Shown: positions 57,086-63,872 of the stretch, one piece after another | Layout: the number at the start of each line of letters is the position of its first letter | How positions within the stretch are numbered: position 1 is the stretch's first letter | Source: Oscillospiraceae bacterium | GTDB taxonomy: Bacteria > Bacillota > Clostridia > Oscillospirales > Acutalibacteraceae | Length of the DNA stretch: 64,000 bases | Direction: 5' to 3' | Assembly (NCBI GenBank): GCA_902769255.1 | Contig: CACXOM010000003.1 | Span: forward strand, 48,814 to 112,813 | Notes under the pieces: generated by a model | What the model saw: the letters and a program-made list of their open reading frames with translations, nothing else | Told to the model about the DNA's origin: nothing | Database searches by the model: none | Position numbers and translations under genes: made by a program

Positions 57086-57157
57086 ATGTTTACAACTTGT
57101 TAAATAATTTTTGTTTTCTTTATGATATAATAGTCTGCGATGAAAAGGGGCGGTGTT

Positions 57158-58024
57158 ATGTTCGGCTATGTAAAAGCTTATAAACCTGAACTTAAAATTT
57201 CCGAATATGATACCTATAAAGCGGTTTATTGCTCGCTTTGCAGACAATTGGGCAAAGACTACGGCGTTTTTGCAAAATTTATTTTGTCTTACGATTTTGT
57301 TTTTTTGGCAATGCTTAAATTAGGACTTGAAAACGAGTGTTGCGGTTATAAAAAAATGCGTTGCCCTTTTAATCCTTTAAAAAAGTGTATGCGCCTTGAT
57401 AAAGATTCAAATGCGCTTTCGTTTTCGGCGGCTTGTTTGATAATTATGTTTTACTATAAACTGCTTGATGATTTTAAAGACAACGGTTTAAAAGGTAAAA
57501 TTCGTTCGGGATTTTTATTTCCGATATTTTCGCATTATCATAAAAAAGCGGTTAAAAAATTCCCCGAAATTGAGAAAGTTACCGCTTCGCTTATGCAAAA
57601 ACAAGCAGAGGTTGAAAAGGCTGAATCAACCAGCGTTGATTTAGCGGCGGAGCCTACCGCAAAACTGCTTGAATTTGTTTTTTCTTATGGTGAAGAAGGA
57701 AATAACAAGCGAATTTTAGAAAAATTAGGCTATCTTGCAGGCAAATGGGTTTATCTTGCAGATGCTTTAGATGATTTAGAAGAAGATTTTAAGAAAAAAT
57801 CTTATAACCCGTTTTTAAGAAAATATCAAGATATGAATATTGCTAAACAAAACGCAAAAGCGCTTATAAACAATTGTAATGTTGAAATAGCAAAATCTTT
57901 TGAATTGCTCCGATTTCAAAGATACAAAACAATACTTTCAAATATTATTTACTTAGGCTTGCCTAATGTTTTAAAACAAATATTAAACAAAAACAAGGAG
58001 AATAAAAATGACAAATCCTTATGA
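57158..58024 (+). CDS. DUF5685-like protein with cysteine motifs and two acidic DD motifs
   Basis: The product is 288 residues from the ATG at 57158, which has a purine-rich aaaggggcggtg upstream; an ATG at 57140 would be almost leaderless behind the TATAAT at 57126-57131. Visible features are [11 protein letters not shown] (about 22-32), [11 protein letters not shown] (about 65-75), and a mostly helical body. The body carries LLDDFKDN (about 109) and [17 protein letters not shown] (about 207), two Asp-rich stretches about 100 residues apart. These recall, without proving, metal-binding motifs of all-alpha isoprenoid synthases. I recognise it as a DUF5685-type family of unknown function. It overlaps the J-protein gene by 17 bases. 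Confidence 0.7.
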
Positions 58025-58613
58025 GGTTTTAGGTGTCGGCAGAAATGCAACTGATGAAGAAATTAAAAACGCTTATAAAAATTTAGCGAGAAAATATCAC
58101 CCCGACAACTATTCTGACAATCCGCTTTCTGACCTTGCGGAAGAAAAAATGAAAGAAATTAATGAAGCGTATGACGCTATTATGGGACAGCGCAGAAATG
58201 CCGGTCAAAATAGTTCAAACGGCGGTTATTCGAGCGGTGGTTCGGGTGTTTTTGCTGATGTTCGCAACTATATTAATCAAAACCGTTTAGAAGAAGCGAG
58301 AGAGATTTTAGACGGTGTTCCGCTTGCAAACAGAAATGCAGAGTGGTATTTTTTAAACGGTATGGTGCTTTATCGAAAGGGTTGGTATGACGATGCTTTT
58401 ACATCTGTTTCAACCGCTTGCAGAATGGACCCTAACAACCTTGAATATCGCAATGCATTAAACAGAATAAACGCAAGCAGACAAGGAGCTTTTGGCGGTT
58501 ATAACGCAGGCAGTTACGGAAACGATTGCTCTGTGTGCAATGTTTGCCAAGGACTTATTTGCGCAGATTGTTGTTGCGAATGTATGGGCGGAGATTTAAT
58601 TCGTTGTTGTTAA
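58008..58613 (+). CDS. J-domain protein with TPR-like middle and cysteine-rich tail
   Basis: The product is 201 residues. An N-terminal J domain (1-62) contains the HPD motif in [11 protein letters not shown] glycine/serine linker (about 65-82) and a helical TPR-like region (about 83-155, [13 protein letters not shown] and [20 protein letters not shown]) follow. The tail has nine cysteines in the last 30 residues ([22 protein letters not shown]). It lacks the standard DnaJ zinc finger and C-terminal domains, so it is a specialised co-chaperone. It overlaps the DUF5685 gene by 17 bases, suggesting joint function. The tail may bind metal or be a membrane-association or acylation site. Confidence 0.85.
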
Positions 58614-59201: not shown

Positions 59202-60434
59202 TTGAAAGTTTATGATGTGGCAGTAATAGGCGGCGGCGCGGCAGGGCTTTTTTGCGCAGGGCAGTTAGCAAGCAAAGGCAAAAGCGTTGCGCTTATTGAA
59301 AAAAATGAAAAAGTCGGCAGAAAATTGATGATTACAGGCAAAGGCAGATGTAATGTAACCAATATGTGCGACCAAAACGACTTAATTGAATCGCTTACAA
59401 AGAATAAAAAGTTTATGTACAGCGCATTTTCGGCGTTTAGCGCTTATGATACTTTCGATTTTTTTGAAAGCAGGGGAGTTGCGCTTAAAGTTGAAAGGGG
59501 AAACAGGGTTTTTCCTGTTTCTGATAAGGCAAGTGATATTGTTGATTGCCTTTATGATTTTGTTAAAGAGCAAAATGTTATGATAATTAATAACACCGCA
59601 ACGGGACTTGAAATGCAAAACGGCGTTATTAGTGCAGTTAATCTTGACAGCGGTGAAAAAGTTTTTTCAAAAAATGTTGTAATTGCAACCGGCGGAAAGT
59701 CTTACCCGAAAACAGGCTCGACCGGTGACGGTTACCGCTTTGCAAAGTCGGTAGGGCATAATATTATAAAGCCGATAGGCTCGCTTGTGCCGGTTTGTGT
59801 TGCCGAAGGTGCCGCTGCCGAGTGTCAGGGGCTTTCACTTAAAAACGCTGCAATTAAAGTTGAAGACACAAAAGACGGCAATATAATTTACAAAGATTTC
59901 GGTGAAATGCTTTTTACGCATTTCGGACTTTCGGGGCCTATGATTTTATCGGCTTCGGCTCATATGCGAGAGTGTGAAAAATCACGATATAAAATACATA
60001 TTGATTTAAAACCTGCACTTGACTTTAAAAAATTAGATGACAGAGTTTTAAGAGATTTTTCGGAAAATTCAAATAAGATTTTGTCAAATTCCTTAACAAA
60101 ATTATTGCCTTTTAAACTAATTCCTGTTATAATTAAATACAGCGGTTTAAAACCCGATTTGGTTGTAAATCAAATAACAAAAGAGCAAAGAGAAAGGCTC
60201 GTTTCATCGCTTAAAGATTTTTGTTTTAGTGTTACTTCTTTGCGTGATGTCAGCGAGGCGATTGTAACGTCGGGCGGGGTTGACTGTAACGAAATTGAGC
60301 CGAAAACAATGCGTTCAAAAAAGGTAAAAAATCTGTATTTTGCAGGCGAAGTTATTGATGTTGACGCTTACACAGGCGGATTTAATTTGCAAATAGCGTT
60401 TTCTACCGCTTTTGCCGCAGCAAATGCAATTTAA
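59202..60434 (+). CDS. HI0933-family FAD-dependent oxidoreductase
   Basis: The 410-residue flavoprotein starts at TTG behind aggggaaa. The dinucleotide-binding fold is VAVIGGGAAGLFCAGQLA (about 5-22). The HI0933/YhiN family motifs GRKLMITGKGRCNVTN (about 42-57), IATGGKSYPKTGSTGDGYRFA (near residue 165) and the C-terminal YFAGEVIDVDAYTGGFNLQ are intact. The substrate is not established, although the family is often annotated as an aminoacetone or thiazole-type oxidoreductase. It overlaps no gene; cmk follows after 13 bases. Confidence 0.92.
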   Translation: MKVYDVAVIGGGAAGLFCAGQLASKGKSVALIEKNEKVGRKLMITGKGRCNVTNMCDQNDLIESLTKNKKFMYSAFSAFSAYDTFDFFESRGVALKVERGNRVFPVSDKASDIVDCLYDFVKEQNVMIINNTATGLEMQNGVISAVNLDSGEKVFSKNVVIATGGKSYPKTGSTGDGYRFAKSVGHNIIKPIGSLVPVCVAEGAAAECQGLSLKNAAIKVEDTKDGNIIYKDFGEMLFTHFGLSGPMILSASAHMRECEKSRYKIHIDLKPALDFKKLDDRVLRDFSENSNKILSNSLTKLLPFKLIPVIIKYSGLKPDLVVNQITKEQRERLVSSLKDFCFSVTSLRDVSEAIVTSGGVDCNEIEPKTMRSKKVKNLYFAGEVIDVDAYTGGFNLQIAFSTAFAAANAI

Positions 60435-60447
60435 AGGAGATAAAATT

Positions 60448-61116
60448 ATGATTTCAGTAGCAATTGACGGACCTGCAGGCGCAGGCAAGAGTACAATAGC
60501 GAAAACTGCTTCAAAAAAATTAGGTTATATTTATATTGATACAGGTGCGCTTTACCGTTCAATCGGTTATTTTGTTGTATCAAACGGCGGTGATATTGAC
60601 AACGCCGAAAGTGTTGTATCGTTTTTGCCGAACATTAGCGCAGAAATTAAGTTTATTGACGAAGCGCAACATGTTTTTATTAACGGTGAAGATGTTAGCG
60701 ATAAAATTAGAACTGAAGAGATTTCAAGAGCCGCTTCAAAAGTTTCGGCTATACCGAAAGTGCGTGAGTTTTTGCTTGAACTTCAAAGAGGTTTTGCAAA
60801 AAAATATAATGTTGTTATGGACGGCAGAGATATTGGTACGGTTGTTTTGCCAAATGCGCAAGTTAAAATCTTTTTAACCGCATCTGCCGAAGAAAGAGCA
60901 AAACGAAGATATAAAGAGCAGATTGAACGCGGTTTAGATGTTAGTTTTGACGAGATTTTAGCGGACATTAAAGAACGTGATTATCGTGATGAAAACCGTG
61001 AAATTGCACCGTTAAAACCTGCAGAAGACAGCATTTTGGTTGATACTTCAAATTTGAATATTGAGCAAAGCGTGCAAGCGGTGATTGATACCGTTAAATC
61101 AAAAATAGGAGAATAA
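60448..61116 (+). CDS. cmk: Cytidylate kinase
   Basis: The product is 222 residues from the ATG at 60448 with aaaggaga upstream; an in-frame ATG at 60412 lies in the previous gene. Motifs are IDGPAGAGKSTIAKTASK (P-loop), YIDTGALYRS, MDGRDIGTVVLPNA and FLTASAEERAKRR (lid region). It phosphorylates CMP and dCMP. The order cmk-plsC-ispH/S1 is characteristic of Clostridia. Confidence 0.97.
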   Translation: MISVAIDGPAGAGKSTIAKTASKKLGYIYIDTGALYRSIGYFVVSNGGDIDNAESVVSFLPNISAEIKFIDEAQHVFINGEDVSDKIRTEEISRAASKVSAIPKVREFLLELQRGFAKKYNVVMDGRDIGTVVLPNAQVKIFLTASAEERAKRRYKEQIERGLDVSFDEILADIKERDYRDENREIAPLKPAEDSILVDTSNLNIEQSVQAVIDTVKSKIGE

Positions 61117-61120
61117 TAAA

Positions 61121-61744
61121 TTGAATCCTTATAAACAACCTTTATCGGTTAAAATATTAATTGCTATTTTAATACCGATTTTTAAACTGTTGTTTCGTTA
61201 CGAAATAATTGGAAAAGAGAATTTACCAAAAAGCGGTGGAATTGTATATGCCAGCAATCATATTGCATTTTCTGACCCGATTTTGTGGATTCTTTCAATA
61301 CGCTCTCGTATTCGTTATATGGCGAAAGCGGAACTTTTTGACCACGCATTTTTAAGAGGTGTTTTTAAACTTGCAGGCGTTTTTCCTGTTCAAAGGGGAA
61401 AGGCAAGTGTAAATTCTGTTAATCTTGCGATTGATATTGTTAAAAACGGCGGAATTTTGGGAATTTTTCCAGAGGGAACACGCTCTAAAGACGGCAAGCC
61501 TGCAAGGGCAAAATCAGGCGTGGCTTATATTGCAAACGCAACGGGTGCTGATGTTGTGCCTATGGCGATTGTTACAAAAGGCAAAGTTAAACCTTTTAGA
61601 AAAGTTAAACTTTATGTAGGAAAACCTATACCGCACAGCGAAATTCATTTTGAAGGAACCGATAGAAAAGGGCTTCGCAACGCTTCTGAAAGAATTATGG
61701 GCGAAATAACAAAACTTTGGGAAGAGGGACAAAATGAGTTATAA
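61121..61744 (+). CDS. plsC: 1-acyl-sn-glycerol-3-phosphate acyltransferase
   Basis: The 207-residue protein starts at TTG behind aggag. It has an N-terminal hydrophobic segment (about 8-25) and the acyltransferase motifs ASNHIAFSDPI (the NHxxxxD block, about 44-54) and FPEGTRSKDGKPARAKSG (about 115-132). PVQRGK lies between them. It acylates lysophosphatidate to phosphatidate in the membrane. The end overlaps the next gene by 11 bases. Confidence 0.94.
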   Translation: MNPYKQPLSVKILIAILIPIFKLLFRYEIIGKENLPKSGGIVYASNHIAFSDPILWILSIRSRIRYMAKAELFDHAFLRGVFKLAGVFPVQRGKASVNSVNLAIDIVKNGGILGIFPEGTRSKDGKPARAKSGVAYIANATGADVVPMAIVTKGKVKPFRKVKLYVGKPIPHSEIHFEGTDRKGLRNASERIMGEITKLWEEGQNEL

Positions 61745-63872
61745 AATAACGCTTGCAAAAACCGCAGGTTTTTGTTTTGGTGTAAACAGGGCAATTGAAC
61801 TTGTTGAAAAACTTTTGAGCGAAAACAAAAAAGTTTGTACATTAGGTCCTATTATTCATAATCCGCAAATGGTTGAGTCGCTAAAACGACGAGGAGTTAT
61901 TATTGCCGAAAATATCGACGATGTACCGAAAGGGTATACGGTGGTAATTCGCTCGCATGGCGTTGATAAAAATACTTACGAAATAATCAAACAAAACAAT
62001 CTTGAAATTTGTGACGCTACTTGTCCTTTTGTTTATAAAATTCATAAAATAGTTGATGAGAATTCAAATGAAAATACTCCTGTTTTAATCGCGGGAGATG
62101 AATCTCACGCAGAGGTTATCGGAATAAAAGGCTTTGCAAACGGCAAAGTTTATTGTTTTACATCTGAAGAAGAATTGTCGGAAATTGTCGAAAATTGTAA
62201 AAATTTGGGTGACAATTCGCCGATAATTGTTGCTCAAACGACTTTTAATCAAAAAAAATGGCAAAAATTCAAAAAAATTATAAAAAAAGTATGTACAAAT
62301 GCGATTTTTTTTGATACAATATGTTATGCGACTGCCGAAAGACAAAATGAAGCAGAATCTTTATCGAAGCAGAATGATTTAATGGTTATTATCGGCGGCA
62401 GGCACAGTTCAAACACAAAGAAATTGTTTGATATTTGTTCCGCCAACACAAAAACCTTTTTAGTTGAAACTGCTGATGAGTTAGATGAAAAATGCTTTAA
62501 ATCGGCTCGCGCTGTCGGAATAACAGCAGGCGCTTCCACACCTGCCGTTATAATTAAGGAGGTACTAAACAAAATGACCGAAATTTTGAAAAACGAGGAA
62601 ACTATGGCTGAAGAAGTTACAGCCCAAACTAATACGGAGGCTGAGTCGGCTGATAAGTCCTTTGAAGATATGCTCGAAGAGTCGCTTAACAGTATGAACC
62701 ATAACCAAAAGGTTAAGGGCGTTGTGTTGGCTGTAAACCCAACCGAAGTTCAGGTTGATATCGGAAGAAAACAAACCGGTATTATTCCTGCAAGTGAACT
62801 TTCTAACGACCCTAATGTTGAGCCTGCTGATATTGTTAAAGTCGGCGATGAAATTGACCTTATCGTTATGAAAACAAACGACCAAGAGGGAATTGTTACT
62901 CTTTCTAAAAAGCGTTTTGACTCATATGCTGGCATCGCTAAAATGGAAGAGGCAAAAGAAAACGATGAAATTTTAGAAGGCAAAGTTACCGCTGTTGTTA
63001 AAGGTGGCGTTACTGTTGTTTCTAACGGTGTTCGAGTATTCGTTCCTGCTTCTCACGCAACACTTAGAAGAGGAGAGGATTTGAATCTTTTAGTAGGTAC
63101 CGATGTTAAATTTAAAATTATCGATATTCGCAGAGGCAGAAATGTTGTAGGTTCAATTCGTGTAGTTCTTAGAGATGAACAAAAGAAAGTTCAAGAAGAA
63201 TTATGGGAAAAATTGGCTGTCGGCGATACATATGAGGGTGTTGTTAAATCTCTTACATCATACGGCGCATTTGTTGATATCGGCGGTGTTGACGGTATGA
63301 TTCATATTACTGAACTTGCTTGGACAAGAATTAAACACCCATCAGAAGTTGTTAATGTAGGCGACACAGTTACAGTTTACATTAAAGACCTTGACAAAGA
63401 GAATAAAAAGATTTCTTTAGGTTTCAAAAAAGCTGAAGATAATCCTTGGGAAATTATTAAAACAAAATATCAAGTAGGCGATACTGCTACTGTTAAAATT
63501 GTAAGTTTCGCTTCTTACGGCGCATTTGCTAATGTAATTCCGGGTATTGACGGTCTTATTCACATTTCGCAAATTGCAAATAAGAGAATTGAAAAACCTC
63601 AAGATGTTCTTAAAGTAGGCGACGAGGTTGAGGCAAAAATAATCAGCATTGATTATGACGCAAAACGAGTAAGCCTTTCAATTCGTGCGCTTTTACCTGA
63701 AGAGGAAGTTGCTCCTGAAACTGAAGAAGAACCTGAAACCGTAGCAGAACCTCCAAAAGGTTATGTTTGCGACCCTTGCGGTTATGTTTTTGAGGGTGAA
63801 ACTTTACCGGAAGATTTTGTTTGCCCGCTTTGTGGTGCAACTGCAGACCAATTCAAACCTTTAAAAGACTAA
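61734..63872 (+). CDS. ispH: IspH - four-S1-domain - rubredoxin fusion protein
   Basis: The product is 712 residues. IspH (1-281) has its three [4Fe-4S] cysteines at C14 (AGFCFGVNRA), C97 (CDATCPFVY) and C197 (DTICYATAERQ), plus the substrate-site motifs SHAEVIG and GGRHSSNTKK. It reduces HMBPP to IPP and DMAPP, the last MEP-pathway step. Four S1 domains follow (about 326-394, 411-480, 496-565, 582-651), like ribosomal protein S1. After an acidic linker comes a short rubredoxin knuckle (676-712) with C679/C682 and C697/C700 (CDPCGYVFEG, CPLCGATADQF). IspH-S1 fusions are known in Clostridia; the rubredoxin tail is unusual. An internal Shine-Dalgarno site and ATG sit at the junction. Confidence 0.93.
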   Translation: MSYKITLAKTAGFCFGVNRAIELVEKLLSENKKVCTLGPIIHNPQMVESLKRRGVIIAENIDDVPKGYTVVIRSHGVDKNTYEIIKQNNLEICDATCPFVYKIHKIVDENSNENTPVLIAGDESHAEVIGIKGFANGKVYCFTSEEELSEIVENCKNLGDNSPIIVAQTTFNQKKWQKFKKIIKKVCTNAIFFDTICYATAERQNEAESLSKQNDLMVIIGGRHSSNTKKLFDICSANTKTFLVETADELDEKCFKSARAVGITAGASTPAVIIKEVLNKMTEILKNEETMAEEVTAQTNTEAESADKSFEDMLEESLNSMNHNQKVKGVVLAVNPTEVQVDIGRKQTGIIPASELSNDPNVEPADIVKVGDEIDLIVMKTNDQEGIVTLSKKRFDSYAGIAKMEEAKENDEILEGKVTAVVKGGVTVVSNGVRVFVPASHATLRRGEDLNLLVGTDVKFKIIDIRRGRNVVGSIRVVLRDEQKKVQEELWEKLAVGDTYEGVVKSLTSYGAFVDIGGVDGMIHITELAWTRIKHPSEVVNVGDTVTVYIKDLDKENKKISLGFKKAEDNPWEIIKTKYQVGDTATVKIVSFASYGAFANVIPGIDGLIHISQIANKRIEKPQDVLKVGDEVEAKIISIDYDAKRVSLSIRALLPEEEVAPETEEEPETVAEPPKGYVCDPCGYVFEGETLPEDFVCPLCGATADQFKPLKD
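62556..62576 (+). promoter_or_regulatory. Internal ribosome-binding site and ATG at the IspH/S1 junction
   Basis: AAGGAGG (62556-62562) lies 11 bases upstream of an in-frame ATG at 62574, codon 281 of the fusion, exactly where IspH homology ends. A second, weaker site (gagg five bases before ATG 62604, codon 291) follows. Either would give a separate S1-rubredoxin protein of about 420-430 residues. Confidence 0.65.

What the first reader, a model, noticed from the sequence alone, without database searches (positions are those of the whole stretch)
61734..63872. Three-part fusion: IspH, four S1 domains and a C-terminal rubredoxin knuckle
One 712-codon frame joins an iron-sulfur enzyme of isoprenoid synthesis, a ribosomal-S1-like RNA-binding array and a short rubredoxin-type iron site (C679, C682, C697, C700, with 14 residues between the knuckles, closer to rubrerythrin tails than to free rubredoxin). 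IspH-S1 fusions are known in Clostridia. I do not know of a described role for an added rubredoxin. It could feed electrons to the IspH cluster, or make the S1 module redox- or iron-responsive, linking isoprenoid supply to translation.
Basis: partly seen in the sequence, partly recalled or inferred. Interest (0 to 1): 0.78.

Follow-up and report, generated by a model that had tools for sequence, protein, structure and literature searches.

The report
Hidden second start in IspH-S1 gene
A bacterial gene thought to make one long fused protein (an isoprenoid enzyme plus a ribosomal protein) carries, at the join, a strongly conserved second start signal, so it probably also makes the ribosomal protein by itself; in one rumen genus that ribosomal protein has also gained a small rubredoxin-type tail.

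Summary
The three-part frame is real: 712 codons, IspH + four S1 domains + a short-spaced rubredoxin tail (C679, C682, C697, C700). The tail is no frameshift artefact: three genomes of the genus share it (one cut by a contig end) under purifying selection (dN/dS 0.05-0.14). Elsewhere it was not seen: 2 of 218 complete fused C-termini have it. Its closest relative in this genome is the tail of a flavin reductase beside a flavodiiron-like gene.

The larger result is at the IspH/S1 join: AAGGAGGT (62556-62563) with an in-frame ATG (M281) 11 nt after GGAGG. In 231 of 231 fused genes read, all from one phylum, GGAGG is followed by an in-frame start (230 ATG, 1 GTG) at 11 or 8 nt. Of 12 loci where S1 overlaps IspH out of frame, 10 keep this signal; 8 of 8 IspH genes without S1 beside them lack it. 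In this genome S1 has ribosomal-protein-like codon usage and IspH does not. Most likely S1, here with its tail, is made largely by itself and the fusion is a second product; this weakens the electron-feeding idea. No expression data were available.

The parts
61734..63872 (+). full open frame, 712 aa: IspH + S1 array + short-spaced rubredoxin tail
61734..62573 (+). IspH (LytB) part, codons 1-280
   Evidence: Pfam PF02401 residues 5-281
62556..62563 (+). AAGGAGGT, internal Shine-Dalgarno sequence inside the last IspH codons (K275 E276 V277)
   Evidence: read; GGAGG in 231 of 231 fused genes
62574..62576 (+). internal in-frame start codon ATG (M281), 11 nt after GGAGG
   Evidence: a start codon in frame in 231 of 231 fused genes
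62574..63872 (+). predicted separate product: S1 protein with rubredoxin tail, 432 aa
   Evidence: inference
62661..63740 (+). S1 protein region with four S1 domains (residues 310-669)
   Evidence: NCBIfam NF005208 best stretch; Pfam S1 four stretches
63762..63857 (+). short-spaced rubredoxin domain (residues 677-708; C679, C682, C697, C700)
   Evidence: PF21349 above its cut-off; nearest solved folds are rubredoxins, weak E-values
61121..61744 (+). upstream gene, acyltransferase of PlsC type (named by eye); overlaps the ispH start by 11 nt
   Evidence: ORF; name from my reading of the sequence
60412..61116 (+). cytidylate kinase-like gene (named by eye); cmk near the S1 gene is a recalled common bacterial order
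   Evidence: ORF; name from my reading of the sequence

Best explanation
The ispH-S1 gene is a two-product gene. Ribosomes that start at 61734 make IspH and read on into S1, giving the fusion. Other ribosomes bind the strong AAGGAGGT inside the last IspH codons and start at M281, giving free S1, the organism's ribosomal S1. In this genus the S1 end has gained a short-spaced rubredoxin domain, most likely copied from the tail of the flavin reductase beside the flavodiiron-like gene, so the tail is carried mainly by S1. Shown by sequence: the signal, its conservation, its survival in most out-of-frame arrangements, a higher codon adaptation of S1 than of IspH, and a tail under purifying selection. 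Inferred: actual initiation at M281, the ratio of the two products, the source of the tail, iron in it and what it does (my guess: a redox- or metal-responsive knuckle on S1, not an electron donor to IspH).
For: (1) Conservation: in 231 of 231 fused genes read, of 261 distinct IspH loci, GGAGG sits at the join with an in-frame start: 222 ATG and 1 GTG at 11 nt, 8 ATG at 8 nt. The script scored 230; the last, L050, was settled by eye (sequences). The amino acid before the conserved E varies (K, E, R, G, L) but its codon ends in G. (2) Synonymous constraint: G-ending codons make up 97% at each of the two signal positions (246 of 253; 236 of 244), against a mean of 36% and a maximum of 63% over the 61 other K/E/Q positions. 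(3) Broken fusions: 12 loci have S1 overlapping IspH out of frame; 10 of them keep GGAGG at the same site, with ATG or GTG 9-10 nt later in the S1 frame. On a 249-tip tree the fused/overlapping/separate state needs at least 7 changes. (4) Control: 8 of 8 IspH genes with no S1 found beside them lack GGAGG at that site. (5) Codon adaptation to ribosomal-protein regions: IspH 0.588, S1 0.760, r-protein regions 0.740 here; S1 above IspH in 18 of 19 genomes. (6) Predicted anti-SD pairing is stronger at the internal start than at the ispH start in 121 of 129 scorable loci, -13.1 vs -9.0 kcal/mol. (7) mRNA around the internal start is less structured than the gene's own mean in 225 of 231. (8) In this genome no second IspH was found; the other S1-type matches were a 318-aa frame at 27% identity and S1 domains in larger frames.
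Against: No expression data. The codon step does not fall exactly on the join: in this genome the first 60-codon window past it (residues 301-360) is still low, 0.60, and the rise to 0.78 comes after that; in some distant genomes the difference is tiny (G600, G738, G751) and in G579 it is reversed. The low-structure result is not unique: windows 270-300 nt upstream are about as weak (-6.2 and -5.9, against -5.6 at the start). GGAGG occurs 764 times elsewhere in the same 231 genes, 38 of these with an in-frame ATG/GTG at 8 or 11 nt, so a single such site is not rare; the conservation is what counts. The usual spacing of 11 nt is long: only 6% of 232 GGAGG-ATG pairs in r-protein regions have it, mean 8.3, so initiation may be less than maximal. 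2 of 12 out-of-frame overlaps and six further separate S1 genes do not use this site. The 231 genes are related, not independent; comparison with other codons of the same genes answers this only in part.
Confidence: 0.8

Rival explanations
1. Plain three-part fusion: only one protein is made, and the rubredoxin tail hands electrons to the IspH cluster in the same chain.
For: The frame is open throughout, and the in-frame state is kept in 231 genes at spacings of 11 or 8 nt although 9-10 nt is common in r-protein regions. A fused Clostridium thermocellum protein expressed in E. coli is an active IspH (Rao 2015, PMC4746011, section read).
Against: It does not explain the invariant internal Shine-Dalgarno and start codon, their survival in most out-of-frame arrangements and absence in solitary IspH, or the higher codon adaptation of S1. 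Removing S1 domains left IspH activity almost the same in vitro (PMC4746011, passage). The tail is missing in the other 216 of 218 complete fused C-termini.
Confidence: 0.1
2. The AAGGAGGT is not a start site but a ribosome pause signal that lets IspH fold before S1 is made.
For: It sits at a domain border. SD-like pausing inside genes has been proposed (recalled, not looked up).
Against: A pause signal needs no start codon, yet one is kept at 11 or 8 nt in 231 of 231; out-of-frame pairs use the same signal for a separate S1 gene.
Confidence: 0.08
3. The tail is a zinc knuckle that only stabilises S1 or its ribosome contact, with no redox role.
For: Four-cysteine knuckles of this kind can hold Zn or Fe (recalled); a Zn-substituted rubredoxin is among the fold matches. 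The tail rides on S1.
Against: Its closest relatives in the same genome are a tail of a flavin reductase beside a flavodiiron-like gene and a short rubredoxin beside a rubrerythrin-like gene.
Confidence: 0.35
4. The in-frame state is a by-product: with S1's start inside the last IspH codons in the same frame, IspH has no place to stop, and the fused form is a tolerated read-on product without function.
For: Fusions were broken several times, with both IspH and S1 frames kept.
Against: Broken states are few (18 of 249 tips, and I looked for them on purpose) although a one- or two-base change suffices, so the fused form is probably useful in most lineages.
Confidence: 0.35

Closest known systems
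IspH-RPS1 fusion proteins (NF000907; Rao et al. 2015, PMC4746011)
   Same: Domain order, homology (737 bits); the paper places them mainly in anaerobic Firmicutes.
   Different: Described as one fused 'Rosetta stone' protein. The words Shine, internal, start codon and rubredoxin do not occur in its main text (supplement not seen). Here a conserved internal start and, in one genus, an added rubredoxin tail.
Genes with internal in-frame start sites that yield a shorter C-terminal protein (e.g. Cas11b in an archaeal CRISPR-Cas system; infB and others recalled)
   Same: Same logic: a start site inside a longer frame gives a second protein (PMC11899642, title and start of abstract seen).
   Different: Here the inner product would be a ribosomal protein and the outer one an unrelated enzyme fused to it, with the signal kept in every fused gene read in one phylum.
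Short-spaced rubredoxin domains of rubrerythrins and flavodiiron proteins (PMC6033852)
   Same: PF21349 match; CxxC pairs 14 residues apart here, 12 in the C. difficile flavodiiron protein (passages read).
   Different: Attached to ribosomal S1 instead of a diiron or flavin redox enzyme.

Membership tests
Bifunctional IspH/S1 (NF000907) | score above the curated cut-off over IspH and the S1 array | tested here: met
   737.1 vs 624 bits, residues 4-666
Bifunctional IspH/S1 (NF000907) | single fused polypeptide in the cell | not testable with these tools
   sequence predicts a second, separate S1 product
Short-spaced (rubrerythrin-type) rubredoxin, PF21349 | two CxxC pairs about 12-14 apart; score above the cut-off | tested here: met
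   36.9 vs 26.5 bits; 14 residues between pairs
Short-spaced (rubrerythrin-type) rubredoxin, PF21349 | binds one iron by four cysteines | not testable with these tools
   four cysteines kept in 3 of 3 tailed genomes; metal not tested
Canonical rubredoxin, PF00301 | score above the cut-off, long spacing between CxxC pairs | tested here: not met
   19.9 vs 23 bits; spacing 14
Internal in-frame translation start | conserved Shine-Dalgarno and start codon inside a longer frame | tested here: met
   231 of 231 fused genes
Internal in-frame translation start | signal retained when the inner gene is out of frame, lost when the inner gene is absent | tested here: met
   kept at the site in 10 of 12 out-of-frame overlaps; absent there in 8 of 8 solitary IspH; six more loci with a separate S1 next door place S1's start elsewhere
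Internal in-frame translation start | product seen in cells | not testable with these tools
   no proteomic or ribosome-profiling data on hand

The most novel reading that the evidence does not exclude
Throughout this phylum the ribosomal protein S1 is made from a hidden start inside the IspH gene, while a smaller fused IspH-S1 fraction puts an iron-sulfur enzyme on some ribosomes as an iron or redox sensor; in this rumen genus the free S1 itself has acquired an iron-rubredoxin tail, giving ribosomes a second, S1-borne redox-responsive site linked to oxygen defence.
Probability: 0.15. Interest if true: 0.88.

Novelty: new variant of a known kind. Interest (0 to 1): 0.62.

Why it matters
IspH-S1 has been cited as a 'Rosetta stone' fusion whose existence implies a functional link between isoprenoid synthesis and the ribosome. 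If S1 is made mainly from its own start, that inference must be reconsidered, S1 in such genomes is annotated with the wrong N-terminus, and the real question becomes what the fused form does. The prediction is sharp and cheap to test. The rubredoxin tail would be a redox-type metal site on a core ribosomal protein.

Tried and rejected
Tail as frameshift or assembly artefact: rejected (three genomes, purifying selection). Tail by read-through of a conserved downstream gene: no rubredoxin frame seen downstream in the stretches held of the tail-less relatives L009 and L301. Tail elsewhere: candidates whose matches ran to residue 689-696 (L211, L178, L187) end without cysteine pairs; several long matches ran through stop codons. 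Stops inside 14 fused genes of the listing first looked like split genes; none lies at the join. One miss in the script count (L050) was a second GGAGG upstream of the true one. Literature: ten searches found no report of an internal start in IspH-S1 or of a rubredoxin-tailed IspH-S1 or S1; the library holds open-licence papers only. Fusobacterium IspH-S1 (named in PMC4746011) was not examined.

Rows dropped: of 261 distinct loci, 30 were not scored as fused: 10 out-of-frame overlaps with GGAGG; 4 cut by a contig end or an early stop (L139, L151, L321, L322), all four with GGAGG before an in-frame ATG; 8 with S1 next door but another start arrangement (L132, L138, L303, L304, L307, L308, L310, L318; of these I labelled L138 and L310 out-of-frame overlaps, and the S1 start of L310 is not settled); 8 solitary (L152-L156, L316, L317, L320; L316 and L317 have GGAGG further on, after the IspH stop, before a gene that is not S1). 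The surveys returned more matches than I fetched: 183 of 200 family genomes, 218 of 291 class genomes and 286 of 299 phylum genomes matched. Genomes to fetch were chosen by rank in the listings and by family, and the short IspH frames on purpose, not at random. G056 was left out of the codon test because its IspH-S1 locus had not been fetched, so 19 of 20 r-protein regions were used.

Full report
OBSERVATION. The frame at 61734-63872 is intact and reads IspH, four S1 domains and a C-terminal short-spaced rubredoxin. The tail matches the rubrerythrin-type rubredoxin model above its cut-off and canonical rubredoxin below its cut-off. A model of the tail from a four-sequence alignment (mean pLDDT 82, pTM 0.56) finds rubredoxins as its best solved matches, though with E-values of only 2.7e-3 and up and TM about 0.6.

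WHERE THE TAIL OCCURS. Within the genus 3 of 4 genomes have it. Two of them appear under names, the Ruminococcaceae MAGs RUG11873 and RUG12659 (that these are rumen isolates is my reading of the RUG label, recalled); the latter is cut by its contig end after the fourth cysteine. The fourth genome of the genus (68% identity) and the nearest other genus (69%; goat colon MAG RGIG2202 matches it) lack the tail. In 394 genomes of the order only the window genome covered the tail without stops in the listed rows. Among 218 complete fused C-termini 2 have paired CxxC motifs, L001 and L299. Between the three tailed species dN/dS over the tail is 0.05-0.14, close to IspH (0.07-0.11) and above S1 (0.03), from few changes.

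ORIGIN OF THE TAIL. All three tailed genomes hold a 207-213 aa frame with a 58-60% identical match to the tail, and a short frame (39-53 aa) close to a 182-193 aa frame, both with weaker matches. In the window genome I read these: a flavin reductase ending in a rubredoxin of the same 14-residue spacing next to a flavodiiron-like gene, and a 37-aa rubredoxin beside a rubrerythrin-like gene, named by eye. In the two tail-less relatives neither the flavin-reductase tail nor the short rubredoxin showed at E <= 0.01; G003 has one weak match in a 186-aa frame, which may be the rubrerythrin, and G083 one in a 64-aa frame. A related Oscillospiraceae MAG (L302) has flavodiiron, flavin reductase and rubredoxin in one 620-aa chain. 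Copying of this tail onto S1 is the simplest source (inference).

THE JOIN. Codons K275-E276-V277 read AAG GAG GTA, a full Shine-Dalgarno sequence, 11 nt (counted from GGAGG) before ATG 281. The same arrangement was read in 111 of 111 first family loci, 86 of 86 class-level loci, a few of them again from the family, and 20 of 20 further phylum-level fused loci. A common count over distinct sequences gives 231 of 231 fused genes (L050 settled by eye, L131 has GTG). The octamer is AAGGAGGT in 185, GAGGAGGT in 24, and five other forms, all with GGAGG, in 22; elsewhere in the same genes GGAGG occurs 1.6 times per kb. The codons that make it are the most G-ending of 63 testable positions, 97% against a mean of 36% and a next best of 63%.

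NATURAL EXPERIMENTS. In G135, G590, G675 and seven other genomes S1 is out of frame with IspH: IspH ends a few codons later while S1 keeps GGAGG and an ATG or GTG at 9-10 nt. Eight further loci have S1 next door with another arrangement; in one of them, L132, the separate S1 has its own AAGGAGGT before its ATG. Eight IspH genes without a detectable S1 in the stretch held lack GGAGG at the site. On a 249-tip FastTree tree (231 fused, 12 overlapping, 6 separate) these states need at least 7 changes, against a mean of 17.7 for shuffled labels; some of the branches concerned have low support.

EXPRESSION PROXIES. With the frames of each genome's ribosomal-protein region as reference, codon adaptation here is 0.588 for IspH, 0.760 for S1 and 0.740 for the r-protein region. 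The rise does not fall exactly on the join: residues 301-360 are still at 0.60, the next window at 0.78. In 18 of 19 genomes S1 exceeds IspH, but the gap is tiny in G600, G738 and G751, and G579 is reversed. Predicted pairing with the anti-Shine-Dalgarno is stronger at the internal start in 121 of 129 scorable loci. RNA structure is weak around it in 225 of 231, but as weak 270-300 nt upstream.

WHY THE FUSION MAY STILL MATTER. The spacing is 11 nt in 223 and 8 nt in 8 fused genes, both in frame; in r-protein regions 7-9 nt make up 67% and 11 nt 6% of 232 GGAGG-ATG pairs. Keeping an unusual but in-frame spacing suggests that the fused form is also used. I cannot separate this from IspH needing those residues.

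LITERATURE. Rao et al. 2015 (PMC4746011; outline, opening part and sections 15, 17, 18 and 22 read, term search of the main text) describe IspH-RPS1 as one chain, report finding no other ispH or rps1 genes in such organisms, show that S1 removal leaves IspH activity almost unchanged in vitro, and speculate on iron or oxygen sensing. An internal start or a rubredoxin is not mentioned in the main text by the terms searched. PMC6033852 (passages) reports about -110 mV for the short rubredoxin of a C. difficile flavodiiron protein and +185 to +280 mV in rubrerythrins; a centre in that range looks a poor donor for a low-potential 4Fe-4S enzyme (my inference; IspH potentials not looked up).

VERDICT. 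The tail is a real, genus-restricted addition whose metal and role are unknown. The internal start is the broader and better supported feature; its use in cells is a prediction.

Noticed in passing
L005 1498-3124 (-), own genome contig C2: Flavodiiron-like frame overlapping a flavin reductase + short rubredoxin frame; the three tailed genomes all show a 207-213 aa frame with this tail, while a related Oscillospiraceae MAG (L302) has all parts in one 620-aa chain.
   Followed up: partly
L006 907-1602 (-), own genome contig C12: 37-aa free short rubredoxin directly upstream of a rubrerythrin-like frame with an N-terminal rubredoxin knuckle (reverse rubrerythrin by eye).
   Followed up: no
62595-62606: A second candidate start, GAGG then ATG (M291, MAEEV...), 10 codons after M281, also present in the two other tailed genomes (L007, L008); it could give a slightly shorter S1.
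   Followed up: no
58008-58613: J-domain-like protein (by eye) ending in a cysteine-rich tail ([28 protein letters not shown]), overlapping the end of a cysteine-containing protein at 57140-58024.
   Followed up: no
L321 (G1036): IspH-S1 frame interrupted about 134 codons past the end of IspH with S1 continuing in another frame; a frameshift in the sequence or a broken fusion.
   Followed up: no
L310 and L138: Two lineages place S1's likely Shine-Dalgarno elsewhere in the ispH 3' end (GGGAGGT; AAGGAG), with S1 in another frame.
   Followed up: partly
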